Assembly: GCF_902805515.1 (NCBI RefSeq)
Contig: NZ_CADCTE010000016.1
Location: 1-56,806, forward strand
Direction: 5' to 3'
DNA: 56,806 bases
From: an uncultured Arthrobacter sp.
GTDB lineage: Bacteria > Actinomycetota > Actinomycetes > Actinomycetales > Micrococcaceae
The first letter of the stretch is position 1. Each line of letters starts with the position of its first letter. Shown here piece after piece: positions 5,572 to 55,574 of the stretch. The notes below the pieces were generated by a model. That model worked only from the letters and a program-made list of their open reading frames with translations, did no database searches and was not told the DNA's origin. The translations under genes and the position numbers were made by a program.

Positions 5572-5630
5572 CCGCGGTGCCCCTCAGCGGGCCGATCCTT
5601 CGGCGGGTCCCCCGCGGTGCCGATCAGCGG
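5572..5630. repeat. Two-copy direct repeat containing the ruvC stop codon
   Basis: The pattern CCGCGGTGCC-NN-TCAGCGG occurs at 5572-5590 and 5612-5630 (period 40). The ruvC stop (5624-5626, TGA on the minus strand) lies in the second copy. The first copy supplies another TGA 40 nt downstream, in a different frame. Confidence 0.75.
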
Positions 5631-6199
5631 CGCCGGGCCCTCGCCTCGGCCTCGGCCCACATCCGCTGGGCAGGCGTGGCGGCTCCCGCACCGGAGGCGG
5701 CGGCCGCACCCTGCAGGCCCACTCCCCTGCGCCAGGCGTGGGTGATGGCCAGGGCCAGGGCATCGGCGGCGTCGGCCGGCCGCGGCGGGGCGTCAAGGCG
5801 CAGGATCTTCGTGACCATCTTGGTGACGGCCACCTTGTCGGACTGCCCGTTGCCGGTCACCGCGGCCTTGACCTCGGTGGGGGTGTGCAGTGCAACGGGG
5901 ATTCCGCGCCGGGCTGCGGCGGCGATGACCACCCCGGAGGCCTGAGCGGTTCCCATCACGGTGCTGACATTGAGCTGGCTGAACACCCGTTCGACGGCCA
6001 GCACATGCGGGGAGTGAAGGTCGAGCCACTCGTCGACGGCCTCGGCAATGACCAGCAGCCGCTGGTCGAGGCTGCGCCCGGCCTCCGTACCCACCACGCC
6101 CACGGCGACCAGGGTCGAGTGGCGGTTCGGTTCGACGTCGACGACGGCCAGGCCGCACCGGGTCAGCCCGGGGTCGATGCCCATGACGCGGATCGTCAC
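5624..6199 (-). CDS. ruvC: Crossover junction endodeoxyribonuclease RuvC
   Basis: RuvC is the dimeric resolvase that cuts Holliday junctions using divalent metal. The 191 residues carry the RNase-H-fold acidic residues in [10 protein letters not shown], in [12 protein letters not shown] (Glu) and in [10 protein letters not shown] (two Asp). The start is GTG at 6199; an in-frame ATG five codons later would remove the first strand of the fold, so GTG is preferred. yebC ends 33 nt upstream, giving a pdxT-yebC-ruvC run. The stop codon sits in a duplicated segment. Confidence 0.95.
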
Positions 6200-6232
6200 G
6201 GCTCACCGTCCCGCAGGCCCGCCCGGACGGTG

Positions 6233-6991
6233 CTAATCGTCGGTCTCGAGTTCGGCGAGGACCTCTTCGGAGAGGTCGGCGTTGGAGTACACGTTCTGCA
6301 CGTCGTCGAGCTCTTCGAGGGCGTCAACGAGCTTGAGGAACTTCTTCGCGCCGTCGACATCCAGCTCGACCTGCATCGAGGGAACGAATTCGGCCTCGTC
6401 GGTGTCGTATTCGATGCCGTTCTCCTCGAGCGCGGCCACGACGGCCCGCAGGTCCTGGGGCTCGGAGATCACTTCGAAGGTGTCGGCGGACTCCTTGACC
6501 TCCTCGGCGCCGGCGTCGAGGACCGCCATCAGGACATCGTCCTCGGACAGGCCGTTCTTCGGCAGCGTGACGACGCCCTTGCGGGTGAACAGGTAGGCCA
6601 CCGAGCCCGGGTCGGCGACGCTGCCGCCGTTGCGGGTGATCCCGAGGCGGACCTCGGAAGCGGCCCTATTCTTGTTGTCGGTGAGGCACTCGATGAGCAG
6701 GGCCGAGCCCTGGGGCCCGCGCGCCTCGTACATGATGGTCTGGTAGTCGACGGCGTCGCCGAGGAGCCCGGCACCGCGCTTGACGGCGCGGTTGATGTTG
6801 TCGATGGGGACCGAGGTCTTCTTCGCCTTGGACACCGCGAGCTCGAGGCCCGGGTTGCCGGCGAGGTCCGCGCCTCCGGCCCGCGCCGCCACCTCGATGT
6901 TCTTGATCAGCTTGGCGAAGGACTTCGCGCGCTTGGCGTCGATCGCGGCCTTCTTATGTTTGGTTGTAGCCCACTTAGAGTGCCCCGACAT
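6233..6991 (-). CDS. yebC: YebC/PmpR family protein
   Basis: The 252-residue protein begins [21 protein letters not shown], the signature N-terminus of the YebC family, followed by a three-helix domain and two mixed alpha/beta domains ending in an acidic tail. Members act as DNA-binding regulators or, in some bacteria, help ribosomes at proline-rich stalls; which applies here is not visible. Only 2 nt separate it from the pdxT stop codon, and ruvC follows 33 nt later, matching the conserved actinobacterial order. Confidence 0.95.
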
Positions 6992-6993
6992 GC

Positions 6994-7707
6994 CTACGCT
7001 TCTCCTCTGATCATTCGAATAAACAATTCGTGGACCCGCCGCTCGCCGGTGACTTCCGGATGGAAACTCGTCGCGAGCAGGTTGCCTGACCGCACTGCCA
7101 CAATTCTAGCGACCGTCCCGGACTTATCCGGGCCGCCGTCGTCGGACCCGCCGGGCGGGGGCGTCTCCGGCGCCGGCACCTCGGCGAGGACCTCCACCGA
7201 GGGACCGACCTTCTCCACCCAGGGTGCGCGGATGAAGACGGCCCGCACCGGGTCGTCTCCGCCGGCGCCGACGGTGTCGGCGAGCCCGGTGAAGGCGAGG
7301 TCGGTCTCGAAGGATTCCCGCTGGCGGCCGAAGGCGTTGCGCCGCACCACGATGTCCAGTCCCCCAAGGGTCTGCTGCGGGTTGCCCTGGCGGTCGGTGG
7401 AGGGGTCGGCGATGACGTCGGCGAGCATAATCATGCCCGCGCAGGAACCGTAGGCTGGCAGGCCGCCTTTCAGCAGCGCGCGCAGCGGTTCGGTAAGGTC
7501 GAAGGCCCGGCTGAGCTTGTCGATCGTCGTCGATTCGCCGCCGGGAATGATGATCCCGTCGATGCCCTCCAGCTCGGAGGGCCGCCGGACGGCGATGGCG
7601 GTGCCGCCGAGGGCTTCGATGGTCCGGATGTGTTCGCGCACGTCCCCCTGGACGGCCAGCACGCCGATGCGCACGCCGGAGGAGGGCGAAGGTGAGGAAG
7701 TGGCCAT
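6994..7707 (-). CDS. pdxT: PLP synthase glutaminase subunit PdxT
   Basis: PdxT hydrolyses glutamine and channels ammonia to PdxS for pyridoxal 5'-phosphate synthesis. The 237 residues show the nucleophile motif GSCAGM and the His-Glu pair in SFHPEVTGE, with the GGEST oxyanion segment near the N-terminus. It is longer than the usual 190 residues because of an extended N-terminus and a Pro/Gly/Asp-rich insertion before the final beta strands. Its usual partner pdxS lies about 9.7 kb away in this window, so the two subunits are not co-transcribed here. Confidence 0.95.
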
Positions 7708-7756
7708 CCTCCAATTCTAGGCGGGAGGCCGCGCTGCCGGTGAACCGAGCCGCGGG

Positions 7757-7799
7757 TTGGAGCACCAACTGGTTGGAGCACCAGTTCTTTGGAGCACCA
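7757..7799. repeat. Three direct repeats upstream of pdxT
   Basis: TTGGAGCACCA occurs three times with exact 16-nt spacing (7757, 7773, 7789). The array lies 50-92 nt upstream of pdxT and 13 nt downstream of the tetR stop codon. It could be a binding array for a regulator of pdxT, or another example of the 3'-end repeats seen across this window. Confidence 0.8.
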
Positions 7800-7812
7800 G
7801 CCGGGCGGACGG

Positions 7813-8412
7813 CTAGGCGGACGCGCCGGCTGCCGGAGGTGGCACCACAAGCCGGCGGGCTGCCTCGACGGCGGCACGCCGGTGGGCTCGAGGGTCGTCT
7901 CCGGCGCCCCGGGCCATCAGCGGCGCCTGCGCCCAGGCATGGGCGAGGGAGAAGAGCAGGTGCAGCAGCTCGTCGGCGGCCCACCCCGGATCGATCAGCC
8001 CGCGCCGCTGGCCGTCCCGAATGGCCTCCATCTTCTGCTGGGGAGACGGAACCGCAGCGGGCAGCCGGTAGTCGACGCCCTCAAGCTGAGCCCAGGTCAT
8101 CACCCGGAGGTTCTCGGGATTCGCGTGGATGTGGTCGAACACGGCACCCACGAAGCCGGGAAGATCCGCAGGGTCCAGGGTGACCGCCTCGTGGAATTCG
8201 GAGGCGTTGAGGTCGAGGACGGCCTGGAAGAGGCTCGCCTTGTCGCTGAAGTACGCGTAGAGCCGCTCCTTGCTGGCGCTGGCGCCCCGGGCGATGCTGT
8301 CGATCCGCGCTCCGGCCAGTCCCTTGGCGGCGAACTCGGTGCGGGCAGCGCGGACCACCCTGGTGCGGACGTCGGTCGGGGCGTGTTCCATCCCTTCACT
8401 ATAGTTCCGCAC
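7813..8412 (-). CDS. TetR family transcriptional regulator
   Basis: This 199-residue protein has an N-terminal TetR helix-turn-helix (about 12-58, with ARIDSIARGASASKERLYAYFSDKASLF) and an all-helical ligand domain. It is divergent from a DHA2 exporter gene. A perfect 16-bp palindrome lies in the 88-bp gap between them, 10 bases from its own start. The standard inference is that it represses both itself and the exporter until a drug-like ligand binds. The ligand is unknown. Confidence 0.9.
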   Translation of the reverse strand: MRNYSEGMEHAPTDVRTRVVRAARTEFAAKGLAGARIDSIARGASASKERLYAYFSDKASLFQAVLDLNASEFHEAVTLDPADLPGFVGAVFDHIHANPENLRVMTWAQLEGVDYRLPAAVPSPQQKMEAIRDGQRRGLIDPGWAADELLHLLFSLAHAWAQAPLMARGAGDDPRAHRRAAVEAARRLVVPPPAAGASA

Positions 8413-8421
8413 AACGCACCG

Positions 8422-8437
8422 AACGAACTAGTTCGTT
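8422..8437. promoter_or_regulatory. Perfect 16-bp palindromic operator between tetR and the exporter
   Basis: AACGAACTAGTTCGTT is fully self-complementary. It abuts and overlaps by one base the exporter -35 element and lies 10 bp before the tetR start, so one bound dimer pair could shut both genes. Confidence 0.85.
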
Positions 8438-8465
8438 TGACGTCGGTGAATCTGCTTCCTAAGCT
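8437..8465 (+). promoter_or_regulatory. Sigma-70-type promoter of the DHA2 exporter
   Basis: The -35 TTGACG (8437-8442) and -10 TAAGCT (8460-8465) are separated by 17 nt. The start codon is 35 nt further on, with an AGGAG ribosome site. Confidence 0.65.
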
Positions 8466-8500
8466 GGGACCCTTCCCCCACCGCATCCGACAGGAGCACC

Positions 8501-9973
8501 ATGTCCACCCCTGCCCCCGCCCCGGCGGAATCACTTCCGCCGGGCACCACCGGCAGCACCCGCGCACGCTGGATCGTCCTGGCCGTCGTCGCCCTTGCCC
8601 AGCTGATGGTGGTGCTCGACGGCACCATCGTGAACATCGCCCTCCCCCAGGCGCAGCAGGCGCTGGGCATGAGCGACAGCGACCGCAGCTGGGTCGTGAC
8701 CCTCTACGCCCTGGCCTTCGGCGCGCTCCTGCTCCTGGGCGGGCGCGTCGCCGACTACTGGGGACGCAAGCGGTCATTCCTCACCGGCATGGCCGGCTTC
8801 GCCCTCGCCTCCGCCCTGGGAGGCGTGGCGACGACCCCCGAGATGCTGCTGGCCGCGCGCGGCCTCCAGGGCGCGTTCGCGGCCCTGCTCGCCCCGGCCG
8901 CGCTGGCGATCCTTTCGGTCACCTTCCCCGGGGGCAGGGACCGCGTGAAGGCATTCGCCGTCTACGGGACGATCGCCGGAGGCGGCGCCGCCATCGGCCT
9001 GCTCCTGGGCGGCGTGCTCACCGAATACTTCAGCTGGCACTGGTGCCTGCTCGTGAACGTGCCGATCGCCGCCGTCGCGATCGCCGCAGGAATCCCGCTG
9101 CTCAAGGAAAGCCGCGCCGAAGGGGACACCCGGTACGACCTCCCCGGCGCCGTCCTGGTCACCGCGGGCCTCGCGTCCGTCGTCTACGGATTCTCCCGGG
9201 CGGAATACGGGTGGGCCCGGCCCGACACCATCGCCTTCCTCGCGGCCGGCGCCGTCCTGCTCGCCGTCTTCCTCCGCGTCGAGGCGGTCTCCAACCACCC
9301 GCTGCTACCCCTGCGGGTGCTTGCCGACCGGGTCCGCGGGGGTGCCTACCTCGTCTCGATCCTCGTCGGGGCCGCACTCCTTGGCGGCCTGCTCTACCTC
9401 ACGCTCTACTTCCAGATCGTGCTCGGCCTCAGCCCGCTGGCCTCCGGCCTCGCCTCCCTGCCCATGACGGCCGCCATCATCGTCAGCGCGGCGCTCGTCT
9501 CCAAGGCGCTCCCCGTCGTCGGGCCGCGGATCCTGATGACCGCCGGCCCGCTCACCGCCGCCGCCGGGCTGCTCTACCTGAGCCGGATCAGCGTTGAGGG
9601 CAACTACGTCCTCGAGGTGCTGCCCGGCCAGCTGCTGCTGGGCATCGGACTGGCCCTGGTCTTCGTGCCCCTGCAGAACGTCGCCCTGGCCGGCATCGAA
9701 TCCCGCGACGCCGGGGTGGCCAGCGCCGCCGTCACCGCCACCCAGCAGATCGGCGGATCGATCGGAACCGCCGTCTTCACCGCCCTCTATGCGGCCGCCG
9801 CGGCTACCGGCAGCGGCGAACCGGCCACCCTGGCTCCACTGGTCGAGGGCTACTCGAGCGTCTTCCTCGCCGCCGCCGTCGCCCTCGCGGCAGCCGCGCC
9901 CATCAGCTGGTTTATGGTGCGGGTGGACCGGAGGATGTTTTCCACCTCGAGCGAAGCGGTGCACCTTGGCTGA
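8501..9973 (+). CDS. DHA2-family MFS drug exporter (14 TM)
   Basis: This is a proton-coupled efflux pump of the EmrB/QacA type. The 490 residues begin with a Pro/Ser leader, then a first TM helix with the DHA2 signature VLDGTIVNIALP (motif D1). Motif A GGRVADYWGRKRSF follows TM2, and further TM segments total about 14. The TetR neighbour and operator indicate ligand-induced expression. The start has a good AGGAG site 6 nt upstream. Substrates cannot be told from sequence. Confidence 0.93.
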   Translation: MSTPAPAPAESLPPGTTGSTRARWIVLAVVALAQLMVVLDGTIVNIALPQAQQALGMSDSDRSWVVTLYALAFGALLLLGGRVADYWGRKRSFLTGMAGFALASALGGVATTPEMLLAARGLQGAFAALLAPAALAILSVTFPGGRDRVKAFAVYGTIAGGGAAIGLLLGGVLTEYFSWHWCLLVNVPIAAVAIAAGIPLLKESRAEGDTRYDLPGAVLVTAGLASVVYGFSRAEYGWARPDTIAFLAAGAVLLAVFLRVEAVSNHPLLPLRVLADRVRGGAYLVSILVGAALLGGLLYLTLYFQIVLGLSPLASGLASLPMTAAIIVSAALVSKALPVVGPRILMTAGPLTAAAGLLYLSRISVEGNYVLEVLPGQLLLGIGLALVFVPLQNVALAGIESRDAGVASAAVTATQQIGGSIGTAVFTALYAAAAATGSGEPATLAPLVEGYSSVFLAAAVALAAAAPISWFMVRVDRRMFSTSSEAVHLG

Positions 9974-11281: not shown

Positions 11282-12003
11282 TGTCCAAGGGCACGATATC
11301 CATCCTTCAGCTGTACCCCCGCGAGATGAACATCTACGGTGACTGGGGCAACGTCCTGGTGCTCAAGCAGCGCCTGGCCTGGCACGGATACGACGCCGTC
11401 ATCTCCGAACACAACGCCGGCGACAGCTTCCCCGACGACGCCGACCTGATCATCGGCGGAGGCGGGCAGGACAGCGGCCAGCTGGTGATCCAGGAGGACC
11501 TTCAGGCCATTGGGCCCCGCCTGCGCGGACTGGCCGAGGACGGGCAGCCGATGCTTGCCATCTGCGGGCTCTACCAGCTGTTCGGCAAATTCTTTCGGAC
11601 CGTGGACGGCACGGTGATCCCGGGCATCGGGGTGCTCGACCTTGAGACCCACGGTGGAAAGGAGCGCCTCATCGGCAACGTCGTCGCCACCAGCGGGGAG
11701 TTCGGCGAGATCCACGGGTACGAGAACCACAGCGGGCAGACCTTCCTGGGCGCCGGAGTGACGCCGCTTGCCACCGTCACCAAGGGTGAGGGCAACAACG
11801 CCCGCGACAACCACGAGGGCGCGCGCCACCACAATGTGGTGGCCAGCTACCTCCACGGCTCGCTGCTCCCGAAAAACCCGGCGATCGCTGACTTCCTTAT
11901 CCGGACCGCAGTCGAGCGGAAGTACGGGACCTTCGAGCCAGGCGAGGTTGACGACACCCTCGCCGACCTCGCCCGGCGCCATGCGGGCAGCCGTCCGCGC
12001 TGA
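11281..12003 (+). CDS. gatD: Lipid II isoglutaminyl synthase, GatD glutaminase subunit
   Basis: GatD hydrolyses glutamine and supplies ammonia to MurT. The 240 residues form a class-I-like glutamine amidotransferase domain with the nucleophile Cys95 in MLAICGLYQLFG and the catalytic His192 in SYLHGSLLPKNP. The motif YENHSGQTFLG is typical of GatD/CobQ-like enzymes. It is translationally coupled to murT (TGATG). Its stop codon lies inside a short direct repeat. Confidence 0.94.
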   Translation: MSKGTISILQLYPREMNIYGDWGNVLVLKQRLAWHGYDAVISEHNAGDSFPDDADLIIGGGGQDSGQLVIQEDLQAIGPRLRGLAEDGQPMLAICGLYQLFGKFFRTVDGTVIPGIGVLDLETHGGKERLIGNVVATSGEFGEIHGYENHSGQTFLGAGVTPLATVTKGEGNNARDNHEGARHHNVVASYLHGSLLPKNPAIADFLIRTAVERKYGTFEPGEVDDTLADLARRHAGSRPR

Positions 12004-12020
12004 CTCCCGCCCGCGCTGAC
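11995..12020. repeat. Direct repeat spanning the gatD stop codon
   Basis: CCGCGCTGAC occurs at 11995-12004 and 12011-12020 (period 16). The TGA of the first copy is the gatD stop; the second copy gives a TGA in another frame. Confidence 0.7.
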
Positions 12021-12070
12021 CCGCGTCCGTTGGCCCCGCCCCTTGGCTCCGCCCAGTAAGCCAGCGGGGT

Positions 12071-19410: not shown

Positions 19411-20037
19411 TCAGCCCTGCCCGGCGGGGCGGGGGTCCATCGACTGGCGCCGCACGGCGGCGACCCGCTGGAACACTGTGACTCCGCTGGCGAGGGCGAG
19501 CAGGACCAGGACGCCGAGGAGGAACTCCCCCGGCAGGCCAAGGCCGGTCAGTCCGGCGGTGACGAGCACCGACACGAGCCGCTCGGCGCGTTCGGCGATG
19601 CCGACGCTGGCGTCGAAGCCGAGCGCCTCGGCCTTGGCCCGGGCGTAGGAGACGAGCATTCCGAGGACGAGGCACAGCAGGGCCGCGACCGCCGTCGGGA
19701 CGGAGTCCCCGCCGGTGAAGTACCAGATGGCCAGGCCCGCGACCACCGCGCCGTCGGCCACCCGGTCGAGCGTGGAATCGAGGAAGCTCCCCCACGGGCC
19801 GCTGGGTCCCCGCAGCCGGGCCATGATGCCGTCGATGACGTCGGAGAAGACAAACGCGGTGATGAACAGCGTGCCCCAGAAGAGCTCGCCCTGCGGGTAG
19901 AAGGCCAGGGCGCCGACGGCCACGCCGGCCGTGCCGGTGATGGTCACGGCGTCAGGGCTGACCCCCCACCGCAGCAGCAGGGCAGCCAGCGGGGTGAACA
20001 GGGTCGTAAAGAAGGTCCTGGCGTACTTGTTGAGCAT
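19411..20037 (-). CDS. pgsA: Phosphatidylinositol phosphate synthase (CDP-alcohol phosphatidyltransferase)
   Basis: The enzyme joins CDP-diacylglycerol and inositol 1-phosphate to give PIP, the precursor of actinobacterial phosphatidylinositol lipids. The 208 residues have about six TM segments and the full CDP-alcohol motif D-x2-D-G-x2-A-R-x9-G-x3-D-x3-D (starting DVIDGIMAR and ending FLDSTLDRVAD). The inositol specificity is inferred from context: HIT gene upstream by 3 nt and thrS before it, as in Mycobacterium pgsA1. Two further lipid-related kinases occur in this window. Confidence 0.9.
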   Translation of the reverse strand: MLNKYARTFFTTLFTPLAALLLRWGVSPDAVTITGTAGVAVGALAFYPQGELFWGTLFITAFVFSDVIDGIMARLRGPSGPWGSFLDSTLDRVADGAVVAGLAIWYFTGGDSVPTAVAALLCLVLGMLVSYARAKAEALGFDASVGIAERAERLVSVLVTAGLTGLGLPGEFLLGVLVLLALASGVTVFQRVAAVRRQSMDPRPAGQG

Positions 20038-20040
20038 GAT

Positions 20041-20669
20041 TCAGGCACGCCCTTCCGCAGCATCGGCATTCCGCACACCCGCGGCGGCACCGGAGCCGGG
20101 CCAGCCTGCGGCCACCTGCCGGCGCACCTCGTCGAGGGTCTGCGTCACCGCCTTGGTCTGGGCGATGATCGGCAGGAAGTTCCCGTCCCCGCCCCAGCGC
20201 GGGACGACGTGCTGGTGCAGGTGCGCCGCGATGCCCGCGCCCCCGGTGCGGCCCTGGTTCATGCCGATGTTGAAGCCGGTGGGGTTGGACACCGTCCGGA
20301 GCACCCGCATCGCCGTCTGGGTCAGGTCGGCGAATTCCGCCGTCTCGGGCCCGTCGATATCGGTGTAGTCCGGAAGGTGGCGGTAGGGAACCACGAGGAG
20401 GTGACCGGGATTGTAGGGGTAGAGGTTGAGCACCACATAGCAGTGCTCGCCCCGGTGGACGATGAGGGACTCCTCGTCGCTGCGGGTCGGGGCCACACAG
20501 AACGGGCAGTCGTTCTCGCCGGTGACCTGGTCCTGGCCGCCCTTGATGTAGGCGAGGCGGTGCGGGGTCCACAGGCGCTGGAAGGCATCGGGCACGCCGG
20601 CGAGCTGGAAGTCATCCGTCGCCGCGGCATCCCCGGGGTAGTCCGCTCCGGCGTCTGGGGTCCGCTCCA

Positions 20670-20670
<1 letters not shown>
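20041..20670 (-). CDS. HIT domain protein (Ap4A phosphorylase-like)
   Basis: The 209 residues carry the histidine triad HLHQHVVPRW and a CPFC motif near residue 58, as in the mycobacterial Ap4A phosphorylase located in the same gene order. Such enzymes split diadenosine tetraphosphate. Its ATG overlaps the thrS stop by one base, and pgsA starts 3 nt after its stop, so thrS, HIT and pgsA form one translationally coupled run. Ap4A is a side product of aminoacyl-tRNA synthetases, which fits coupling to thrS (inference). Confidence 0.9.
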
Positions 20671-22682
<2,012 letters not shown>

Positions 22683-22867
22683 AGTGGTCTCCTTGCGAAA
22701 GAGGTACGAGCTTATGGCTGGCGTGCATCCGGGGCCGGCGCGCCCGAAATCGGGCGTCGCCGCGGTCCTCTGATCGTATCCGCTGCGCTCGGGCGCGACC
22801 AACAACCGCCGCGCCACGCCCGGGCGTCCGTCCGGCAACCGGGCGGAGGCGGTGAGAGGATCGGGGA

Positions 22868-23302
22868 ATGGATTCAACGGTGAATGTGATCACCCTCGGG
22901 GTGCGCAGCCTCGGGGCCTCCCTCGCCTTCTACGCGGACGGGCTGGGCTGGGCGCCCAAACTCTCCGTCCCGGAGGAGGTGGCCTTCTTCCAGGTGGGCC
23001 ATGGGCTGCTGCTGTCTCTGTTCCGCCTCGACCACCTCGCCGCGGAGGCCGGCGGAGGCGGGCCGGGGAACCCGCAGCTGTTCACCCTGGCCCACAATGT
23101 TGACTCACCGGAGGCGGTCGATGCGGTGCTCCACGAGGCTGCAGCCGCCGGCGGAACGATCGTGGCTGCGGGCACCCAGATGAGCTGGGGCGGGTATTCC
23201 GGGTACTTCGCGGATCCTGACGGATTCCGGTGGGAGGTCTGCTACAACCCCGGCCTGAGGGTGGAGCCGGACGGAACCGTTTCCATCGTCGAAATCGCCT
23301 GA
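22868..23302 (+). CDS. VOC (glyoxalase/bleomycin-resistance fold) protein
   Basis: The 144-residue protein has the beta-alpha-beta-beta-beta repeat of the VOC superfamily: [22 protein letters not shown] at the start and [19 protein letters not shown] near the end. Candidate metal ligands are the C-terminal Glu and Asp, but the substrate is unknown. It is divergent from thrS, with an unconvincing ribosome site (GAGAGGATCGGGGA). Members range from glyoxalases to drug-binding proteins. Confidence 0.8.
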
Positions 23303-23391
23303 CGGAATCGAAACCGGTGCAGCGGCGTTGCATCAGTAGGTACTGAAACCACAACAGCACCACATTTTGCAGCCATCCCAGGAGGAGCACC

Positions 23392-23649: not shown

Positions 23650-23795
23650 GCCGCAGCGGCCGGCCGGCGGGCGCGTCCCGCCGGCTGCCGCGCTGCCGGC
23701 CCGACAGGTCCGGCACACCAGGTCCGGGCCTAGCTGCCGTCCCTACAGGCCGTCCAGCAGCAGGTCAGGTCTTCCAGACCCGGCGCGACGGATGC

Positions 23796-23833
23796 GGTTC
23801 TACGGCTGTGGTTCTACAGCTGTGGTTCTACAG
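23796..23833. repeat. 14-nt tandem array containing the lipoate-ligase-like stop codon
   Basis: GGTTCTAC(R)GCTGT repeats at 23796, 23810 and 23824 (third copy partial). On the minus strand each copy has a TAG; that of the copy at 23824 is the stop of the next gene, and the other two fall in the two remaining frames. Confidence 0.85.
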
Positions 23834-24559: not shown

Positions 24560-24778
24560 GGCCTCCGGCTCCGTCCGTTCGTTCGTTCCGCCTCGTCCAC
24601 CTGCGCTCCGGCTCTCCAGCGGGCTGGTCGACCCGCCTCGGGGCCGCCTGCGCCCGGCAGCGGGCCCGCGCCCAATCTATATGACAGTCTTGGAGTTGTA
24701 AGGTCCGGGCCGCCCCGGTGCAGTGCCGGCGGCGCACCGGAACCGTTCCGCAGCACCGAACTCCACCGGGGGCACTTC

Positions 24779-25847: not shown

Positions 25848-26570
25848 GTGGCACCAGAACCCACGCTGAACGAATTTGAAGTCGTTTTCGGGCGGGTCAA
25901 GGGCCTGCTCCTGACCCGGGAAACGGCCAGCCACGCGGTCGACCTCCTGGCCGAGGCGGCCCGCGACACCATCCCCGGCGCCATGGGCGCCGGTGTGACC
26001 CTGATCGCCGCCGGCACCCCCACCAGCACCGGCTATACCGACCCGCTGGTGGCACGGGTCGACGCCCTGCAATACCGGCTGAACGAAGGCCCCTGCCTCA
26101 CCGCCTGGGCGGAGGCAACACCCGTTCAGGTCGACGACACCCAGACGGAGCCGCGCTGGCCGCGGTGGAGTGCCGCCGCCGCGGGGATCCCGATCCGGTC
26201 CTGCGTGAGCGTCCCCCTGCAGCGCGGCCGCACCACCATCGGTGCCCTGAAGGTGTACTCGGCAGCCCCTGCCGCGTTCGACGCCGGCACCGCGGCCCTG
26301 CTGACCCGGTTCGCCGCGTCCGCCGCGGCCCTGCTCGGCCATATCCAGACGACCGAGACGCCGCAGCGGATCAGCGCCGGGCTCGCGGCCGCCCTGCGCA
26401 GCCGGGACGCCGTCGCCATGGCGCGGGGGGTCCTGATGGCCCGCCTGCACCTGACCGAAGACGAGTCGCTGCTGCGGCTGATCTCCCTGGCGCGCGAGAG
26501 CCGGGCGCCCCTGGCGGCGGTCGCCCGCACGCTGCTGGCCGGCGGACCGAGTACGGCCGGGCCGCGGTAG
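25848..26570 (+). CDS. GAF-ANTAR domain antiterminator-type regulator
   Basis: The 240 residues hold a GAF sensor domain (about 10-165) and a C-terminal ANTAR domain (about 170-236; SRDAVAMARGVLMARLHLTEDESLLRL), a three-helix RNA-binding module that prevents transcription termination by binding paired hairpins. This architecture is common in actinobacteria, where many copies respond to small ligands. The start is GTG at 25848. No ANTAR target hairpin pair is evident nearby. The TAG stop is the first of five TAG triplets carried by a tandem repeat. Confidence 0.88.
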   Translation: MAPEPTLNEFEVVFGRVKGLLLTRETASHAVDLLAEAARDTIPGAMGAGVTLIAAGTPTSTGYTDPLVARVDALQYRLNEGPCLTAWAEATPVQVDDTQTEPRWPRWSAAAAGIPIRSCVSVPLQRGRTTIGALKVYSAAPAAFDAGTAALLTRFAASAAALLGHIQTTETPQRISAGLAAALRSRDAVAMARGVLMARLHLTEDESLLRLISLARESRAPLAAVARTLLAGGPSTAGPR

Positions 26571-26660
26571 GCACCGGCCGGGTCCGGCCGCGGTAGGCAC
26601 CGGTCGGGTCCGGCCGCGGTAGGCACCGGTCGGCGGTAGGCACCGGTAGGCACCGGCCGG
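26564..26660. repeat. 26-nt tandem array containing the GAF-ANTAR stop codon
   Basis: Units GCGGTAGGCACCGGYCGGGT plus CCGGCC begin at 26564, 26590 and 26616 (third partial), then GGTAGGCACCGG recurs twice more. TAG triplets at 26568 (the stop), 26594, 26620, 26637 and 26647 cover all three frames. Confidence 0.9.
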
Positions 26661-28148: not shown

Positions 28149-28216
28149 AGTTCCTGTTCCTTTGCGTTTGGTGCGCACGGACCGTTCCGGCCCACTTGTC
28201 CCAACGACCGGACGGC

Positions 28217-28271
28217 ACTGACCATTCCGGAATCACTGACCATTCCGGAATCACTGACCATTCCGGAATCA
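28217..28271. repeat. Three perfect 18-bp tandem repeats at the thioesterase stop codon
   Basis: ACTGACCATTCCGGAATC repeats exactly at 28217, 28235 and 28253. Each contains the 10-bp palindrome ATTCCGGAAT. On the minus strand the array reads as repeated in-frame TGA codons, the first being the stop of the thioesterase. Confidence 0.95.
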
Positions 28272-29045
28272 CAGCGGGCGGACCGTGAGGATCTGCTCGG
28301 ACCGGCCGAAGGGCCCATCCAGATCGTGCAGGACACTGGAGGTGAGCCCCACCCCGTCCGCCCCGAACGTCACCCTCGTGTCCAGGCCCAGCCAGGACCC
28401 GGATGGCGGGCGGTGGAAGTGTAATTGGAGGTCGACGTTGGGAAACATCCAGCTGCCCGTGCCCGGCCGGACCCTGGCCGCGATCCCGTTGGCCGCATCC
28501 ACCATTCCGCACAGGCGCACGAGGTCCGGCGTCGGCCCGTCATCAACGAGCTCCAGCGGTGTCCGCAGCCAGATGCGGCCACGGCCCGGGCGGTGGCCGG
28601 GCACCACGCGGAACTCGAGGGATTCGATGAAGCCGCCGGGCCACTGCGTCATGCCGTCGTAGGGACCCGCCTCGTCCGGCCCGGGCATGTCGGCATCCTC
28701 GAGGGCGGCGACCTCGGCGGTGTCGGTCCGCGCCAGCCGCCAGGCCCTCGCGGTGACCGCCGTGCGGCCCTGGGCGCGCAGCTCGGCCTCGAGCAGCTCG
28801 ATCGTGCGTCCGGGCCGAAGGACCCGGGTGGAGATCTCGAACTCGCCGCCGGGAATCATGCCCAGGATGTCGAAGCCCACCCGGGCCAGCTGCAGGTCCG
28901 GGCGGGGTTCGCAGTCGAGCAGGTTTTGCACGAGCAGTCCCGCCACGGGCGCCATGTGCTGCTCCCCGGGATTCCAGGCTCCCTGGGCGTGGACGGTCGA
29001 CTCGTACCGGCCCTCCCCCAACGAGCGGTAGTACGAGCCGGACAT
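28269..29045 (-). CDS. Thioesterase family protein (TesB-like double hotdog)
   Basis: The 258 residues match acyl-CoA thioesterase-like proteins with two hotdog folds: GAWNPGEQHMAPVAGLL and ISTRVLRPGRTIELLEAEL in the first half, and SWMFPNVDLQLHFHRPPSGSWLGLD in the second. They are expected to hydrolyse acyl-CoA thioesters in the cytosol; substrate chain length is unknown. A strong AAGGAG site precedes the ATG. It probably shares a transcript with DUF427, which begins 120 nt downstream beyond the triple repeat. Confidence 0.87.
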   Translation of the reverse strand: MSGSYYRSLGEGRYESTVHAQGAWNPGEQHMAPVAGLLVQNLLDCEPRPDLQLARVGFDILGMIPGGEFEISTRVLRPGRTIELLEAELRAQGRTAVTARAWRLARTDTAEVAALEDADMPGPDEAGPYDGMTQWPGGFIESLEFRVVPGHRPGRGRIWLRTPLELVDDGPTPDLVRLCGMVDAANGIAARVRPGTGSWMFPNVDLQLHFHRPPSGSWLGLDTRVTFGADGVGLTSSVLHDLDGPFGRSEQILTVRPL

Positions 29046-36213: not shown

Positions 36214-36220
36214 AGGTGTG

Positions 36221-36318
36221 ATCCGGTCAGTGCGGTCCGGTCAAGCCGGTCCAGCCAAGCCGGTCCGGCCAGAACGGTCCAGCCAGAGTGGTCGGGTCAG
36301 GGTTGTCCGGTCAGGGGC
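36221..36318. repeat. Seven-copy 14-nt tandem array ending in the aldolase stop codon
   Basis: Copies start at 36221, 36235, 36249, 36263, 36277, 36291 and 36305, consensus GTCCGGYCARNNNG. The minus-strand TGA of the 36305 copy is the aldolase stop; copies at 36291, 36235 and 36221 give TGA in all three frames. Confidence 0.85.
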
Positions 36319-37872: not shown

Positions 37873-38017
37873 GATACCCGCTCCCCACGGCGGGAGCTCG
37901 TGGCCGACGGCCCGGGCCGTAGGCTTTCGGCGCCCGTGCCGTTATGCTTCGGCACACCGGGCGGTCCGGTGGCCGTCCGGCGCGTACCGCCGACTCATCC
38001 GGGCACGAGGGGAAGCC

Positions 38018-38647
38018 ATGAGCGCAGGGCACGGGACAGGCACGGCTCCAACGGCTGGCGGGGCCTCGGGCGCTGCACCGGCGCCCCCTCCTCCGCCCTT
38101 CCGAAAGGCCCTGTCCCGAAAAGCCCTGTTCCGACGGGTCCTCCCGGCAGTGGGGCTTGCCGCTGCGGGACTGACCGCCGCCTTGCTGCTTGATCCCGGA
38201 CCGCTGGGAAGGACCCATAACTCGGGTGCAGGCGTTTGCATGCCGAAGCCGGACCAGGGCTCTGCGGCGGCGGGCCAGATTTTCCTGGTCAACAGTTCGC
38301 GGCACCCCGTGACGCTGGAGAAGGTCGAACTGCAGGAGCCGCAGGGCCTCGACCTCGTCGAGGCACACCTGCTGATGGTGCCGGAGGGCGCTGGTGCCAC
38401 CTTCGGTGCCGGGTCGACAGTTCCACGCGATGATCAGCATCGCCGGTGGTGGGCCGCGGCCGAGCCGGCCGTGGGCAGCGAAATTCCTGCCGGGGCCACC
38501 GGGAACCTCATCCTGGCGGTCACCGACGGCGCCGGCGGGGGCGGCGGCGTCACCGAAGGTGCCCGGATTACCTACTCCACCGGATTCCGCAGCTACACGC
38601 TGACGTACGACTTCGGGATCACCCTCGCTTCCGGCGCGTGCCCCTGA
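38018..38647 (+). CDS. Membrane-anchored hypothetical protein
   Basis: From ATG 38018 (GAGGGGAAG site) the 209 residues show a Pro/Gly-rich cytoplasmic N-terminus, a basic segment (FRKALSRKALFRR), one TM helix at about 41-58 and an extracytoplasmic beta-rich domain with NSSRHPVTLEKVELQ and SYTLTYDFGITL. I recognise no family. The domain resembles small Ig-like or copper-chaperone folds in outline only. Confidence 0.6.
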   Translation: MSAGHGTGTAPTAGGASGAAPAPPPPPFRKALSRKALFRRVLPAVGLAAAGLTAALLLDPGPLGRTHNSGAGVCMPKPDQGSAAAGQIFLVNSSRHPVTLEKVELQEPQGLDLVEAHLLMVPEGAGATFGAGSTVPRDDQHRRWWAAAEPAVGSEIPAGATGNLILAVTDGAGGGGGVTEGARITYSTGFRSYTLTYDFGITLASGACP

Positions 38648-38769
38648 GCCCGCCGGGAAGCGAACGCCCCATCGGGGCGCACCGGGAGGAACCGGCGTAG
38701 GCTTGGTTTGCGGTCCGGTCTCCGGTATCCCGGGCTCGAAACCATCATCGCGGAGGGTGGCGAAAGAGG

Positions 38770-39608
38770 ATGGGCGTACGCGTTCGGGACCTGCTGGGCC
38801 GGCACTTGGGCGAGCTGCGGTATGAACCGACCGCCAAGCGCATCCGGGGGATGCTCGATGGCCAGACCCTCTTCGACAGCCGGAAGGCGTTGCTCGTCTG
38901 GGAACCACGGCGTGTCCTTCCCACCTATGCAGTCCCGGTGGGGGATGTTGCCTGCGAGCTGGTGCCGGAGGCCCCCGCTCCGGCTGTGTCGGGCCCCGAG
39001 GCGAAGATTGAACTTCCCGACGTCGCCACGAGCGCTCCGGTGCTGAGTCCCACCGTCCCGTTCCGGGTCCACGCCGGTGCCGGCGTTCCGCTGACGGGGC
39101 GGATGCCCGGAAGCGCCGCAGCCGCCGAGGCATTCCGCCCGGACGATGCGGACCTGCGGGATTACGTTCTCTTTTCCTTCGACTCGCTCGACGCGTGGCT
39201 TGAAGAGGATGAGGAGATCATCGGGCATCCGCGGGATCCCTACTGGCGGGTCGACCGGCGCCGCAGTTCCCTTGAGGTCGAACTGCGGCTCGACGGGCAC
39301 ACGCTCGCCTCGACGAAGCGCCCGATGCTGGTGTTCGAGACGATGCTGCCCGCTACTACTTCCCGGCAGACGCCGTCCGGGTGCCGCTTGTCCCCAGTGA
39401 CACCCGCTCGATCTGCCCGTACAAGGGCCGGGCCCGCTACTTGAACGCCGAGCTGCCCGAACGGACCTACCCCGACCTCGCCTGGACCTATGCCGAGCCG
39501 TTCATCGAAACCGCTGATCTTCAGGGGCTCGTCTGCTTCTTCGAAGAACGGGTAGATCTGCTGCTGGACGGCGTGCCGCAGCCGCGCCGCCGGACACCCT
39601 GGAGCTGA
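38770..39608 (+). pseudogene. Tandem DUF427 protein, frameshifted
   Basis: Two DUF427 domains are encoded. The first (RVRDLLGRHLGELRYEPTAKRI) and the start of the second (EVELRLDGHTLASTKRPMLVFETMLP) are in one frame. The rest (RYYFPADAVRVPL, SICPYKGRARYLNAELP) continues from about 39346 in the -1 frame and ends at 39608. A single missing base in the LPxRYY region explains this. No slippery heptamer is visible, so programmed frameshifting is unlikely; sequencing error cannot be excluded. The last 107 nt overlap the CtaG-like gene on the opposite strand. Confidence 0.8.
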
Positions 39609-40386
39609 CCGGACCGCCGGCAGTCCCGAGCCCGTCACGGTGCTTGCGGACATACTCCTGGGCGCAGAACACGGTAATCAGTGCCGCCTCGACCAGTGCG
39701 CCGCCGTAGTACATCAGGTAGGCCCCGGTTTCGGCCTGGCTTGTGGGAACCCCCGGCGGTGGATACGCGTAGAGGTATTTCGCGAGGACGCCGTGCCCGG
39801 CGAGCGCGGCGAGGAGCACCGCCGTCCGCAGGGGGAACCCGGCCCGGTGCGGGTTCGGGTCGACGCCGATGAGCGCGTTGGTGAAAAGGCACCCCGCCAG
39901 GAGGAAATGAAGCTGAACCGCCGCATGCCCGGCCCCGGAGCCGAGGAGAGCCGCAGCCGGCGTGGTGTACAGAAGCCAGAGCCCGCCGGTGTTCAGGACG
40001 CCGGCCGAAACCGGATGGGCAAGTACGCGCAGGGGCGGAGATCTGAGGAGGCCGGACAGCCGGCGGGCGCGCCCGACGGCGAGCGCCCGCAGGGCCAGCG
40101 TGACCGGTGCGGCCAGAACCAGCAGGAGCGGGGCTGCCATGCCCACCAGAAGATGGGAGCCCATATGGGCCGGAAAGCTCCCTGTGGTCGGACCTGCGGC
40201 CGGGTTGAGGAAACCGAGGGCGGCCGCGCCTACCCCCACCGACCAGAGCACGCTGCGGTACACCGGCCAGGGCCGTCCCGCGCGCCGGGCTCCGGCGGCC
40301 GCTGCCAGATAGAGCGCCAGCGCGGCCAGGAACGGGAGGGCTCCAAGCAGCAGGAAGCCGGGACCCGCGCCGGAGTGCTCATGCAT
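39502..40386 (-). CDS. CtaG-type cytochrome c oxidase assembly membrane protein
   Basis: The 294 residues begin MHEHSGAGPG, followed by about seven TM segments. Family marks are FPAHMGSHLLVGMAAPLLLVLAAPVTLALRAL, HFLLAGCLFTNALIGVDPNPHR and the later MYYGGALVEAALITVF, as in caa3-type (PF09678) assembly factors that help insert copper into oxidase. Several His residues lie in TM edges. The start overlaps the DUF2243 stop by 8 nt. Its 3' end overlaps the frameshifted DUF427 gene. Confidence 0.87.
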   Translation of the reverse strand: MHEHSGAGPGFLLLGALPFLAALALYLAAAAGARRAGRPWPVYRSVLWSVGVGAAALGFLNPAAGPTTGSFPAHMGSHLLVGMAAPLLLVLAAPVTLALRALAVGRARRLSGLLRSPPLRVLAHPVSAGVLNTGGLWLLYTTPAAALLGSGAGHAAVQLHFLLAGCLFTNALIGVDPNPHRAGFPLRTAVLLAALAGHGVLAKYLYAYPPPGVPTSQAETGAYLMYYGGALVEAALITVFCAQEYVRKHRDGLGTAGGPVSSRVSGGAAAARRPAADLPVLRRSRRAPEDQRFR

Positions 40387-44270: not shown

Positions 44271-44678
44271 TCAGCCAAGGGCTGCGGCCAGTTCCCGGCA
44301 GGCGTTCTCGCACCGTCGGCAGGCCTCGGCGCAGATCCTGCAGTGTTCGTGCATCGAGGCGTGGGTTTCGCATTCGTCGGCGCACGTGCGGCAGGCCGCC
44401 TCGCAGGCGGCCAGTACCGCCCGGGTGAGGTTGGCGTCGTAGGCGGTGTGGCGGGACAGCACCTTGCCGGTGGCTGCACAGATATCGGCGCAGTCGAGGT
44501 CCGTGCGGATGCACTTGGTGAGGTGCGCCACGGAGTCCTCGCTCAGGCACGCGTCGGCACACGCGGTACAGGTCTGGGCGCATTCGAAGCACGCAGTGAT
44601 GCATTCGATGAGCCGGTCCCGGTCGATACCTCCCAGGTCCTTGGGGTACGTCTCAAGCATTGCGGCAATGGTGCTCAT
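44271..44678 (-). CDS. Four-helix-bundle copper-binding (Csp-like) protein
   Basis: The 135-residue protein has 18 Cys spaced mostly as CxxxC/CxxC on predicted helices (CITACFECAQTC, CEAACRTCADEC, CRICAEACRRCENAC), plus a few His. This matches the DUF326/copper storage protein family, whose members hold many Cu(I) ions inside a four-helix bundle. There is no Tat or Sec signal, so a cytosolic Csp3-type role is inferred. It converges on the membrane-protein gene (5-nt gap). Confidence 0.9.
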   Translation of the reverse strand: MSTIAAMLETYPKDLGGIDRDRLIECITACFECAQTCTACADACLSEDSVAHLTKCIRTDLDCADICAATGKVLSRHTAYDANLTRAVLAACEAACRTCADECETHASMHEHCRICAEACRRCENACRELAAALG

Positions 44679-44973
44679 GGGTCTGCTCCTTCTGCGGAAG
44701 TCCGGGGTGTGGCCGGCGGATCCGGCCGCCCGTGGCCACCACGGTAGCCATCGGCGCCCTGCGCTGCCAGCAGATTTCGGAAACTGCGTGCGCGGGCAGG
44801 TGGTCGGATTCCTGTGCTCCGCATCGCGTAGTTGGGGGCCCTCGGGTTAGGCCCTCTCCAGCCGGTGTGCAAGGGAAAAACAAGGGCACACGTGGTGGGC
44901 GCGAGGGCTAGGGTCGGTAGCGTCGGAGCCCCGGGCACACCCTTGAAGAGCCCTTACCGGGAAGGTGAGATCC
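44679..44973. other. Divergent intergenic region between csp-like and esterase-like genes
   Basis: In 295 nt I see an inverted repeat GTGTGC/GCACAC (44865-44870 with 44886-44891), which may be an operator, and otherwise no gene. Confidence 0.4.
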
Positions 44974-46287
44974 ATGGATGAAGAGGCAGCATCGATCCGG
45001 GCAGCGGCGCGGCCGCTGTCCTCGGAGACCGACCTTGACCCGCTGCTGGAGCGCATCGGCGATGCCCGGTACGTCCTTATTGGTGAAGCGTCGCACGGCA
45101 CCCACGAGTTTTATGCCTGGCGGGCGGCGCTCTCCCGGCGCCTGATCGAGGAAAAGGGATTCTCCTTCGTCGCAGTGGAGGGCGACTGGCCGGACTGTTA
45201 CGCCGTCCAGCGCTCTGTGACCTGCGCGCAGGAGGCGCCGGAGGATCCGCGTGAGGCCCTGAGGGGCTTCGACCGCTGGCCGACCTGGATGTGGGCCAAT
45301 GACGAGGTGGCGGACTTCGCCCGGTGGCTGCGGAATGGAAATGCCGCCCGTGAGCCGGACCGGCGGGTCGGTTTCTACGGTCTCGATGTCTACAGCCTGT
45401 GGGAGTCGCTTCGGGCGGCCCTTGAATACCTTGAGGAGCACCACCCGCAGCACGTCGGGGCCGCACATGAGGCCTTCCGCTGCCTTGAGCCCTACGCCGA
45501 AGATCCCCAGTCCTATGCCCGCGCCGCGCAATGGGTTCCCGATGGGTGCGAGCCCGAGGTCCTGAGACTGCTGGCTGAACTCCGTTCCTCCATCGCCGAC
45601 GACGGCGGAGGCGACCGGTCCAGCCGCTTCAATGCCGAACAGAACGCCCGGTCCGCAGCGGGGGCGGAGGCCTACTACCGGGTGATGGTGAAGGGCGGAC
45701 CCGATTCCTGGAACGTGCGGGACCGGCACATGGTGGAGACGCTCGAGGAACTGATGAAGCATCACGGCCCCGATGCCAGGGCCATCGTGTGGGAGCACAA
45801 CACCCACATCGGTGATGCCCGCTGGACGGACATGGCCGACGCAGGCATGGTCAACGTCGGCCAGCTGGTCCGCGAGGCCCATGCCCCGGAGGACGTGGTG
45901 CTCGTCGGTTTCGGCACCCACTCCGGACACGTGCTCGCCGCCTCACGGTGGGGCGCACCCGTCCGATCAATGACTCTGCCGGCGGCGCGGAAGGGAAGCG
46001 TCGAACGCCTCCTCCACAATGTCCTGGGGGCAGGCAGTTCGGCCCTTTTCGTTTTCGATGGCGGGGAAGCCGAATGGGCCGCGGACTTCAGGGGCCACCG
46101 AGCCATCGGTGTGGTCTACCACCCCCATGCGGAGCGGTGGGGAAACTACGTGCCGACCGTGCTCAACCGACGGTATGACGCCTTCCTGTGGCTCGATGAG
46201 ACGACGGCGCTGGCACCGCTGCAGGAACCCTCCAAGACGGGAGCGGACCGCTCCGGCGAGTTGGAAACCTGGCCCAGCGGCACCTAG
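44974..46287 (+). CDS. Erythromycin esterase family protein
   Basis: From ATG 44974 the 437 residues show the family motifs VLIGEASHGTHEFY (35-47; Glu38, His41, His44), VAVEGDWPDCYAVQ (67-79) and WEHNTHIGDARWTDM. EreA/EreB-type enzymes hydrolyse macrolides, but most members of this broad family have other or unknown substrates, so no resistance phenotype should be assumed. It is a single-gene unit. Confidence 0.88.
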   Translation: MDEEAASIRAAARPLSSETDLDPLLERIGDARYVLIGEASHGTHEFYAWRAALSRRLIEEKGFSFVAVEGDWPDCYAVQRSVTCAQEAPEDPREALRGFDRWPTWMWANDEVADFARWLRNGNAAREPDRRVGFYGLDVYSLWESLRAALEYLEEHHPQHVGAAHEAFRCLEPYAEDPQSYARAAQWVPDGCEPEVLRLLAELRSSIADDGGGDRSSRFNAEQNARSAAGAEAYYRVMVKGGPDSWNVRDRHMVETLEELMKHHGPDARAIVWEHNTHIGDARWTDMADAGMVNVGQLVREAHAPEDVVLVGFGTHSGHVLAASRWGAPVRSMTLPAARKGSVERLLHNVLGAGSSALFVFDGGEAEWAADFRGHRAIGVVYHPHAERWGNYVPTVLNRRYDAFLWLDETTALAPLQEPSKTGADRSGELETWPSGT

Positions 46288-53785: not shown

Positions 53786-54637
53786 ATGATGGGAGCCCAC
53801 CACGCAGCCTGCGGCGCAGCCGCCTGGGTCGCTGTCACCACCCGGATCGAGGTGGCCGGGCCGCTTCCGGTTCCGCCCGGATCCCTCAGCCTCGGGTTCG
53901 GCCTGTTCGACGTCAGCCCCATCGGCGTCGTGACGGGCGCCCTGGTGACCGCCGGGGCCGCACTGCTCCCGGACGCGGACCACCGCAGCGCGACGATCGC
54001 CAACTCACTGCCCCCGGTGTCGAACTTCGTCTGCACCGGCATCGGGAGGATCGCCGGCGGGCACCGCCGCGGCACCCACTCCCTGCTCGGCGTCCTGGCT
54101 TTCGTGGGCGTGGCCTTGCTGGCAGGCATGTGGACCGCGGAAACCGCAGCGTATGGGACCGTCTATCCCGGAGCGGGCGTGCTGACCGTCCTGCTTGTCT
54201 CCTTCGCCGCCAAGGCGCTGAAGATCATCCCGGATACCATGCGCAAGTTCCCCTGGGCGGTGGGCCTGGCCGCCGGTGCCTTCGTCACCGCCTTCGCACC
54301 CGAGGAGCAGTTCTGGTTTCCGATCGCCGTCGGGCTCGGCGTCGTCGTGCACATCGTCGGCGACATGATGACGACAGGGGGCTGCAACCTCCTCTACCCG
54401 CTTCGGATTCGACCGCCGCGGGTCGTGGCGTCACTGCCGGTGGTGGGCTGGATGTGGAAGCGGAACGGCCATTTCGCCGTGCCCATCCTGGGCAACGCGG
54501 GATCCCTTCGGGAGTGGTGCCTGCTGGTGCCGGTCTCGCTGTATGCGGTGGGCGGTATCGGGGCATCGCTGCTCAGGATCGATAACCCGGAGCTGCAGGC
54601 CCTGGGCGTGCTGGGCGCATCGGGCTGGGGCGGGTAG
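53786..54637 (+). CDS. YdjM-type membrane metal-dependent hydrolase
   Basis: The 283 residues show DADHRSATIA and GGHRRGTHSLLG, the conserved His/Asp-rich motifs of the family, and several TM helices (about 20-40, 55-75, 100-120 and more). E. coli YdjM is SOS-controlled; I see no LexA box here. The ATG at 53786 (second ATG at 53789) follows AAAGGGA. The hydrolytic substrate is unknown. Confidence 0.85.
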   Translation: MMGAHHAACGAAAWVAVTTRIEVAGPLPVPPGSLSLGFGLFDVSPIGVVTGALVTAGAALLPDADHRSATIANSLPPVSNFVCTGIGRIAGGHRRGTHSLLGVLAFVGVALLAGMWTAETAAYGTVYPGAGVLTVLLVSFAAKALKIIPDTMRKFPWAVGLAAGAFVTAFAPEEQFWFPIAVGLGVVVHIVGDMMTTGGCNLLYPLRIRPPRVVASLPVVGWMWKRNGHFAVPILGNAGSLREWCLLVPVSLYAVGGIGASLLRIDNPELQALGVLGASGWGG

Positions 54638-54698
54638 GAGCCGGGTTGGCGCGGCCTTCCCGGGCGGACGCGCTGCTTCCCGAAGGGCGCCTGCCGCG

Positions 54699-55388
54699 TC
54701 AGCGGGAGCGGAGGTAGGAGCCGCGGGTTGGTGTATCGAGCTTCTCGATGGCCGCCCGGACTCCTGAGCGCGACATCGAGTCCGCGTACCGGTCGAGGTG
54801 GGCCAGCAGCCTTGTCCGGTCGATGTCTCCGACATAACGGAGCATCCAGCCGACCCCCTTCTGCACGAGCTCTTCGGGATCTCCGGCGAGCGCTGCAGCG
54901 ATCCTCAGGGTGTCATCAACTTCCTTCCGCTTCAAGAACGCGGCAGTCGCGACGATGGCGCTGCGCCGTTCGGGCCAGAAGACGGATTCGGCCAGCCGGT
55001 CGAGCGGAGTCCGGGGCTTGTCGAGAAGCCACGTGCCGAGCACCTGGTGGGCGGCCAGGTCCACAAGGTCCCAGGTGTCGATGCGGTCGTGCCGCCGCAG
55101 ATACAGCTCATACAACTCAAGGTGGCGCCCGGGCCGGATCTTCCTGGCCGTGGCCGCCTTACCCATGATCGAGCAGGCGCCCACGCGCACTTCGTGGGTG
55201 GGGCTCTCGAGCAGTGCCTCGAGCTCGTCCGCGGACAGGTCAAGGGCGGTCTTGGCCAGGTTGAAGACGTCTCCCATCCTCACGCCGATGAAGGAGTCGT
55301 CCCCGGGGAAGAACCGTTCATATTTGGCCCGCTGGTCCTCGGTGGCGAGCGCACGGAGTGCGCCTTCGAAGTCGGCAGCAGTCCTCAT
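54699..55388 (-). CDS. AlkD-like DNA alkylation repair protein
   Basis: The 229 residues are all-helical, with HEAT-like repeats typical of AlkC/AlkD glycosylases (RMGDVFNLAKTALDLSADELEALL and later DLAAHQVLGTWLLDKPR). They are expected to excise N3- or N7-alkylated purines. The start at 55388 has GAGGAGG upstream. Key aromatic/Asp residues are plausible (WDLVD) but I cannot align them exactly. Confidence 0.85.
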   Translation of the reverse strand: MRTAADFEGALRALATEDQRAKYERFFPGDDSFIGVRMGDVFNLAKTALDLSADELEALLESPTHEVRVGACSIMGKAATARKIRPGRHLELYELYLRRHDRIDTWDLVDLAAHQVLGTWLLDKPRTPLDRLAESVFWPERRSAIVATAAFLKRKEVDDTLRIAAALAGDPEELVQKGVGWMLRYVGDIDRTRLLAHLDRYADSMSRSGVRAAIEKLDTPTRGSYLRSR

Positions 55389-55543
55389 TGATGATGCCTC
55401 CTCAATCCGGCGTCTTCCCCGGATGATAGTCTCCCGGACCGCGGTGGTGAAGGCAGCACCCGCCGGGTCGGTCAGGCAGCACAGCGGCACATCCGGTGGA
55501 GGAACCACCGGTACGGGGCGGTCGGATCCCCGTACCGGTGGCC

Positions 55544-55574
55544 GCCGCCTATCGGGGGCCGGCCGCCTATCGGG
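55544..55574. repeat. 13-bp direct repeat containing the glycerophosphodiesterase stop codon
   Basis: GCCGCCTATCGGG occurs at 55544 and 55562 (period 18). On the minus strand the TAG of the second copy is the stop codon at 55567-55569, and the first copy gives a second TAG in the same frame. Confidence 0.85.

What the first reader, a model, noticed from the sequence alone, without database searches (positions are those of the whole stretch)
5572..55574. Repeats that carry the gene's own stop codon occur at seven or more loci
In ruvC (period 40), gatD (16), lipoate-ligase-like (14), GAF-ANTAR (26), thioesterase (18), aldolase (14) and glycerophosphodiesterase (18), the annotated stop lies in a direct or tandem repeat. 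In every case the array extends downstream of the gene, on both strands. The copies supply further stop codons, in all three frames for three genes and in-frame for two. This regular placement is hard to ascribe to random low complexity. It may reflect slippage tolerated only beyond the stop, selection for back-up stops, or a role in 3' end formation. I know of no described system like this.
Basis: partly seen in the sequence, partly recalled or inferred. Interest (0 to 1): 0.75.

Follow-up and report, generated by a model that had tools for sequence, protein, structure and literature searches.

The report
Ordinary intergenic tandem repeats spanning stops
Several genes in this Arthrobacter genome end inside short tandem repeats, but this looks like the ordinary build-up of small duplications in the DNA just behind genes, where a duplication that spans the stop codon usually does no harm.

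Summary
The repeats are real. At six of the seven genes the stop lies in a repeat far above composition chance; gatD is weaker, but clear in a relative. The window is Arthrobacter, near A. crusticola. Relatives at mostly 90-94% DNA identity carry fewer units at most of these loci, so many copies are recent tandem duplications. In 412 kb of this genome 12 arrays hold a predicted stop, 0 a start. No peak sits on the stop: 7 of 164 stops lie in a repeat against 11, 13, 13 of 164 positions 20, 40, 60 nt downstream. Stop triplets are no better kept among copies than other bases (147/179, 762/941) and arrays do not fold unusually. In-gene periods are multiples of three in 26 of 30. Best reading: slippage duplications surviving where harmless. 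Against it, array counts exceed uniform placement in 3' flanks about 1.4-1.6-fold with the window left out (17 of 34 against 10.9, p=0.018; 20 of 52 against 14.5, p=0.055). Stop-spanning repeats are already described in Yersinia pestis and Xanthomonas. No new system is needed.

The parts
5568..5630 (-). ruvC stop (5624-5626) in a period-40 two-copy direct repeat; the alignment to A. crusticola shows one copy, G013 is too diverged here
   Evidence: Pfam
11996..12027 (+). gatD stop (12001-12003) in an imperfect period-16 two-copy repeat; clear TRF array at the same stop in G013
23788..23833 (-). lipoate-ligase-like stop (23828-23830) in a period-14 array; both relatives also have an array at this stop (G007 period 28, G013 period 14)
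26560..26660 (+). GAF-ANTAR stop (26568-26570) in a period-26 array; A. crusticola has about one unit
28216..28272 (-). thioesterase stop (28269-28271) in 3.2 perfect copies of an 18-nt unit; both relatives have one copy
36222..36316 (-). aldolase stop (36311-36313) in 6.8 copies of a 14-nt unit; the stretch is 94 and 72 nt longer than in G007 and G013; G007 has about two copies. The G013 orthologue is 12 aa longer
55536..55580 (-). glycerophosphodiesterase stop (55567-55569) in 2.5 copies of an 18-nt unit; one copy in the alignment of both relatives

Best explanation
These are short tandem arrays (mostly 13-26 nt units) born as tandem duplications, probably by slippage between short direct repeats, which then gain and lose copies. 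They survive where they do no harm. Inside genes the unit must as a rule be a multiple of three. Around start codons they are removed. Behind a gene any unit length is tolerated, and a duplication that spans the stop leaves the protein unchanged because the gene-proximal copy keeps the original end. A stop inside an array is therefore mostly the edge of an array population living in 3' flanks. Shown: copy-number differences between relatives, start avoidance, triplet periods inside genes, no coverage peak at stops, no extra conservation of stop triplets. Inferred: the slippage mechanism, and that purifying selection is the filter.
For: Copy differences of about whole units between relatives. 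12 stop, 0 start, 26 intergenic and 31 in-gene arrays in 411,535 nt of G000; 32 stop and 0 start among arrays that are less than half coding over eight genomes. Repeat frequency in G000 with 80 nt of free flank: 7/164 at stops, 11/164 at +20, 13/164 at +40, 13/164 at +60, 0/237 at starts. Periods divisible by three in 26 of 30 in-gene arrays against 8 of 32 stop arrays. Stop-triplet bases 147/179 kept, other unit bases 762/941. Perfect 2-3-copy non-coding arrays run on average 4 nt beyond two full units, n = 15, no control run. Protein ends at the same residue in 13 of 17 comparisons.
Against: The per-position profile is a weak test, because arrays hardly enter genes and coverage must fall at the gene end anyway. 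By array counts there is an excess at stops: in G000 11 of 37 seen, 3.5 expected over all non-coding DNA; over 3' flanks only, 11 of 18 against 5.0 in G000 (p=0.002), 9 of 16 against 5.2 in G007 (p=0.04), 4 of 13 against 3.6 in G013, pooled over five Arthrobacter 26 of 52 against 15.4 (p=0.001). With the window and known homologues left out: 13 of 26 against 8.4 (p=0.038), or 14 of 34 against 9.9 (p=0.082) at score >=40; with 400 kb more, 17 of 34 against 10.9 (p=0.018), or 20 of 52 against 14.5 (p=0.055); the new 400 kb alone 4 of 8 against 2.6 (p=0.22) and 6 of 18 against 4.6 (p=0.28). These p values are one-sided and not corrected for the number of sets. That DNA next to the stop is the most tolerant would explain the excess but was not tested. 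Four of 17 protein ends differ. One G013 array that is mostly coding holds a predicted start, and two arrays in L071 do. In Y. pestis the authors found low diversity at some stop-spanning VNTRs and suspected constraint.
Confidence: 0.8

Rival explanations
1. Selection for back-up stop codons: copies are kept because they supply further stops when the first is read through or lost.
For: Copies give stops in all frames or in frame at five window genes. In G013 the aldolase orthologue is 12 aa longer and ends further downstream.
Against: Stop triplets are not better kept than other unit bases (147/179 against 762/941); 34 of 59 downstream triplet copies are still stops, and 8 of the 32 arrays have none (copies compared at the TRF period without gaps). 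Positions 20-60 nt downstream lie in repeats at least as often.
Confidence: 0.05
2. A role in 3' end formation: the arrays work as tandem terminators or RNA-stability elements.
For: Some units hold short palindromes, for example the thioesterase unit (seen in the sequence).
Against: Folding z of stop arrays (-0.78, n=32) does not differ from non-array non-coding DNA (-0.37, n=153; p=0.32). The consensus terminator scan of 20000-39900 finds 7 sites against 7.7 by chance, none in the four stop arrays there; one lies in the intergenic array 37910-37962. Units differ between loci. Rho-dependent ends were not testable.
Confidence: 0.05
3. Gene ends are slippage hot spots, for example where the ribosome leaves the transcript, so arrays form there more often.
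For: Residual 1.4-1.6-fold excess of stop-containing arrays over 3'-flank placement. In convergent pairs of five Arthrobacter, array edges are denser at -20..-1 and 0..19 (2.65 and 1.99 per 1000) than at 20..39 and 40..59 (0.88 and 0.67); at 60..79 the density is 2.53 again, probably the other gene's end.
Against: The excess is borderline outside the window and not significant in the new data alone; greater tolerance next to the stop explains it too.
Confidence: 0.08

Closest known systems
VNTRs (minisatellites) of Yersinia pestis that overlap ORFs (PMC3689786; passages seen)
   Same: Of 88 VNTRs, 48 are intergenic, 24 lie in ORFs with units divisible by three, 16 overlap an ORF end: 10 the stop, 6 the start (one of these a CRISPR). 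The authors argue that stop overlap has less effect on the gene. 84.1% of units are 7-21 bp.
   Different: There the arrays vary between strains of one species; here variation is shown only between species. Here start overlap is much rarer: none in G000, one mostly coding array in G013, two in L071.
GGGAATC heptamer repeats of Xanthomonas and Nostoc (PMC4692102; passages seen)
   Same: Intergenic tandem repeats, many within 50 bp of the stop codon and some overlapping it.
   Different: One shared motif with quadruplex potential; here each locus has its own unit.
TAACTGA repeats of marine Beggiatoaceae (PMC4679880; passages seen)
   Same: In 13 cases repeats overlap an upstream gene's stop; forward repeats carry stops in all three frames.
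   Different: One motif, mostly placed before start codons.
MIRU-VNTRs of mycobacteria (PMC2734929; passages seen)
   Same: Intergenic tandem repeats in a high-GC actinobacterium, variable between relatives.
   Different: A dispersed family of 40-100 bp units; not so here.

Membership tests
Bacterial VNTR / minisatellite | Head-to-tail copies of a short unit beyond chance | tested here: met
   69.2 non-coding arrays per 100 kb non-coding DNA in G000 against 1.5 in Markov-2 sequence
Bacterial VNTR / minisatellite | Copy number differs between close relatives | tested here: met
   between species; strains of one species were not compared
Bacterial VNTR / minisatellite | Units inside genes are mostly multiples of three | tested here: met
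   26 of 30
MIRU or other dispersed repeat family | Same unit sequence at many loci | tested here: not met
   38 units of G000, 703 pairs: 74 pairs share a word of 7 nt or more against 52 for shuffled units, longest 12 against 10
Xanthomonas-type G-quadruplex heptamer repeats | Shared heptamer motif | tested here: not met
   32 of 38 G000 non-coding periods are 13-26 nt; units unlike each other
Tandem intrinsic terminators | Stem-loop with T tract in the unit | tested here: not met
   none in the four stop arrays scanned; folding not unusual. Only 20-39.9 kb of the window was scanned

The most novel reading that the evidence does not exclude
The stretch around the stop codon is a genuine hot spot of tandem duplication, perhaps because transcript and template are exposed where the ribosome leaves, so that gene tails are continually re-edited by slippage. 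This would account for the residual excess of arrays with an edge just inside the stop and for changed protein tails such as those of the aldolase in G013 and the gene at C1:16934.
Probability: 0.08. Interest if true: 0.5.

Novelty: new member of a known kind. Interest (0 to 1): 0.2.

Why it matters
It is an ordinary result with a modest use: the arrays show where short duplications survive in a compact high-GC genome (3' flanks yes, start regions hardly, inside genes mostly in threes) and would serve as typing markers. It also warns that a stop inside a repeat is expected wherever 3' flanks carry arrays.

Tried and rejected
Back-up-stop selection, hairpins or terminators, and a dispersed repeat family were tested and not supported. 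A first polarised indel scan from BLAST gaps found 4 tandem insertions over three species, probably because alignments break at arrays; it was replaced by flank anchoring. In one search arrays that were unanchored or anchored in one relative only are left out of the copy-number claims; of the 8 anchored G000 stop arrays one (C8:18877) is shorter than in both relatives and one (C8:48461) equals G013. In one search the +20/+50 control used plus-strand genes only by a coding slip; one search repeats it on both strands and is the one cited. The low-GC group (10 loci) had a poor gene model (45% coding) and is left out of the counts given here. Literature: one search found no paper; 43, 44 and 51 listed 3, 1 and 12 papers, none closer by title than those cited; PMC4029610 (passages) had nothing on stops.

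Limits. Gene ends come from my own gene finder, not from curated annotation; seven window genes and one TetR gene were checked with Pfam. Arrays shared by the three close species were counted in each in the pooled figures. leave out the window, which was picked because it looked striking, and the stretches known to be homologous; other homologous stretches among G000 and G007 may remain.

Full report
What was claimed. Seven genes were said to end inside direct or tandem repeats that run on downstream and supply further stops, as a possibly new system.

Is it there. Yes. Six of 58 window stops score >=24 in a self-alignment measure, where a Markov-2 control of the same composition expects 0.03. 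gatD scores 22 and is weak in the window, but its 98.75% identical orthologue in G013 ends in a period-16 TRF array. The statements about frames are right.

Where it comes from. The window is the whole contig C16 of a 3.74-Mb, 207-contig genome. DNA identity over the window is mostly 90-94%, with some stretches at 76-90%.

Age of the arrays. At thioesterase both relatives hold one 18-nt unit against three; at GDPD one against two; at aldolase the stretch is 94 and 72 nt longer than in G007 and G013, and G007 has about two units; at GAF-ANTAR A. crusticola has about one unit; at ruvC A. crusticola lacks the second copy. Of 8 anchored G000 stop arrays, 5 are longer than in both relatives, 2 longer than in one, 1 shorter than in both. 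At lipoate-ligase-like and two genes of contig C8 both relatives also have an array at the same stop, and at aldolase G007 does, so some arrays are older and turn over.

How common. In 411,535 nt of this genome TRF (score >=50, period >=8) finds 12 arrays with a predicted stop, 0 with a start, 26 intergenic and 31 in genes. Over eight genomes of the order, among arrays less than half coding, 32 hold a stop and 0 a start; one further G013 array, mostly coding, holds a predicted start. In the 51 loci of the two higher-GC groups fetched, 20 arrays hold a stop and 2 a start, both in L071. Non-coding arrays are 69 per 100 kb of non-coding DNA in G000 against 1.5 in Markov-2 sequence; the other seven genomes range from 21 to 97.

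Is the stop special. Per position there is no peak: among stops with 80 nt of free DNA behind them, 7 of 164 lie in a repeat, against 11, 13 and 13 of 164 positions 20, 40 and 60 nt further, and 0 of 237 starts; G007 plus G013 give 9, 17, 14 and 15 of 327, and 0 of 487 starts; G009 plus G010 give 0, 3, 2 and 2 of 134; three outgroups 5, 6, 5 and 5 of 97. This is a weak test, because arrays hardly enter genes and coverage must fall at the gene end. Per array there is an excess. Uniform placement over permitted non-coding DNA expects 3.5 of 37 in G000; 11 are seen. Placement in 3' flanks only expects 5.0 of 18; 11 are seen; pooled over five Arthrobacter, 26 of 52 against 15.4, p = 0.001. With the window and known homologues left out, 13 of 26 against 8.4, p = 0.038, and after 400 kb more 17 of 34 against 10.9, p = 0.018, or 20 of 52 against 14.5, p = 0.055, at a lower TRF cut-off. 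The new stretch alone is not significant (4 of 8 against 2.6, p = 0.22). So a 1.4-1.6-fold excess at the stop may be real. The simplest reading is that the last codons and the first bases behind a gene are the most tolerant place, since a duplication spanning the stop keeps the protein, while terminators and promoters lie further out; this is inference.

Tests of function. Stop triplets are kept in copies no better than other bases (147/179, 82%; 762/941, 81%), and 34 of 59 downstream triplet copies are still stops. Stop arrays do not fold better than other non-coding DNA (p = 0.32). The terminator scan of 20-39.9 kb is at chance. Periods are divisible by three in 8 of 32 stop arrays and in 26 of 30 in-gene arrays. 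Proteins end at the same residue in 13 of 17 orthologue comparisons over nine loci; the aldolase of G013 is 12 aa longer, ruvC of G013 one residue longer, and the gene at C1:16934 is 4 aa longer in G000 than in both relatives. The other G000 stop arrays (contigs C6, C9, C10) had no relative's stretch at hand.

Known kinds. Yersinia pestis VNTRs include ten that hold a stop codon and six that hold a start (PMC3689786, passages). Xanthomonas heptamer repeats sit near or over stops (PMC4692102, passages). The Arthrobacter arrays are the same kind of thing with locus-specific units. Search 43, the only one naming Arthrobacter, listed no paper on such arrays in that genus; this does not show that none exists.

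Noticed in passing
window 7721-9958: About 2.2 kb with a TetR-family gene (7813-8391, minus) and a predicted 490-aa gene (8501-9973, plus) is missing at this place in both close relatives; the period-16 array 7756-7801 lies in it.
   Followed up: partly
L093 (record titled Vibrio cholerae strain 35D): A contig at 68.8% GC encoding a 73% identical Arthrobacter-type thioesterase; probably a mislabelled or contaminated assembly.
   Followed up: no
window 44494-45890: About 1.4 kb of the window does not align to the fetched G013 stretch, though it does to G007.
   Followed up: no
window 34983-35582: About 600 nt, holding the predicted gene 35027-35437, do not align to the fetched G007 stretch but do to G013.
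   Followed up: no
G000 C10:14178-14635: Three neighbouring arrays with periods 21, 54 and 45, all multiples of three, counted as intergenic; probably a repetitive protein gene missed by my gene finder.
   Followed up: no
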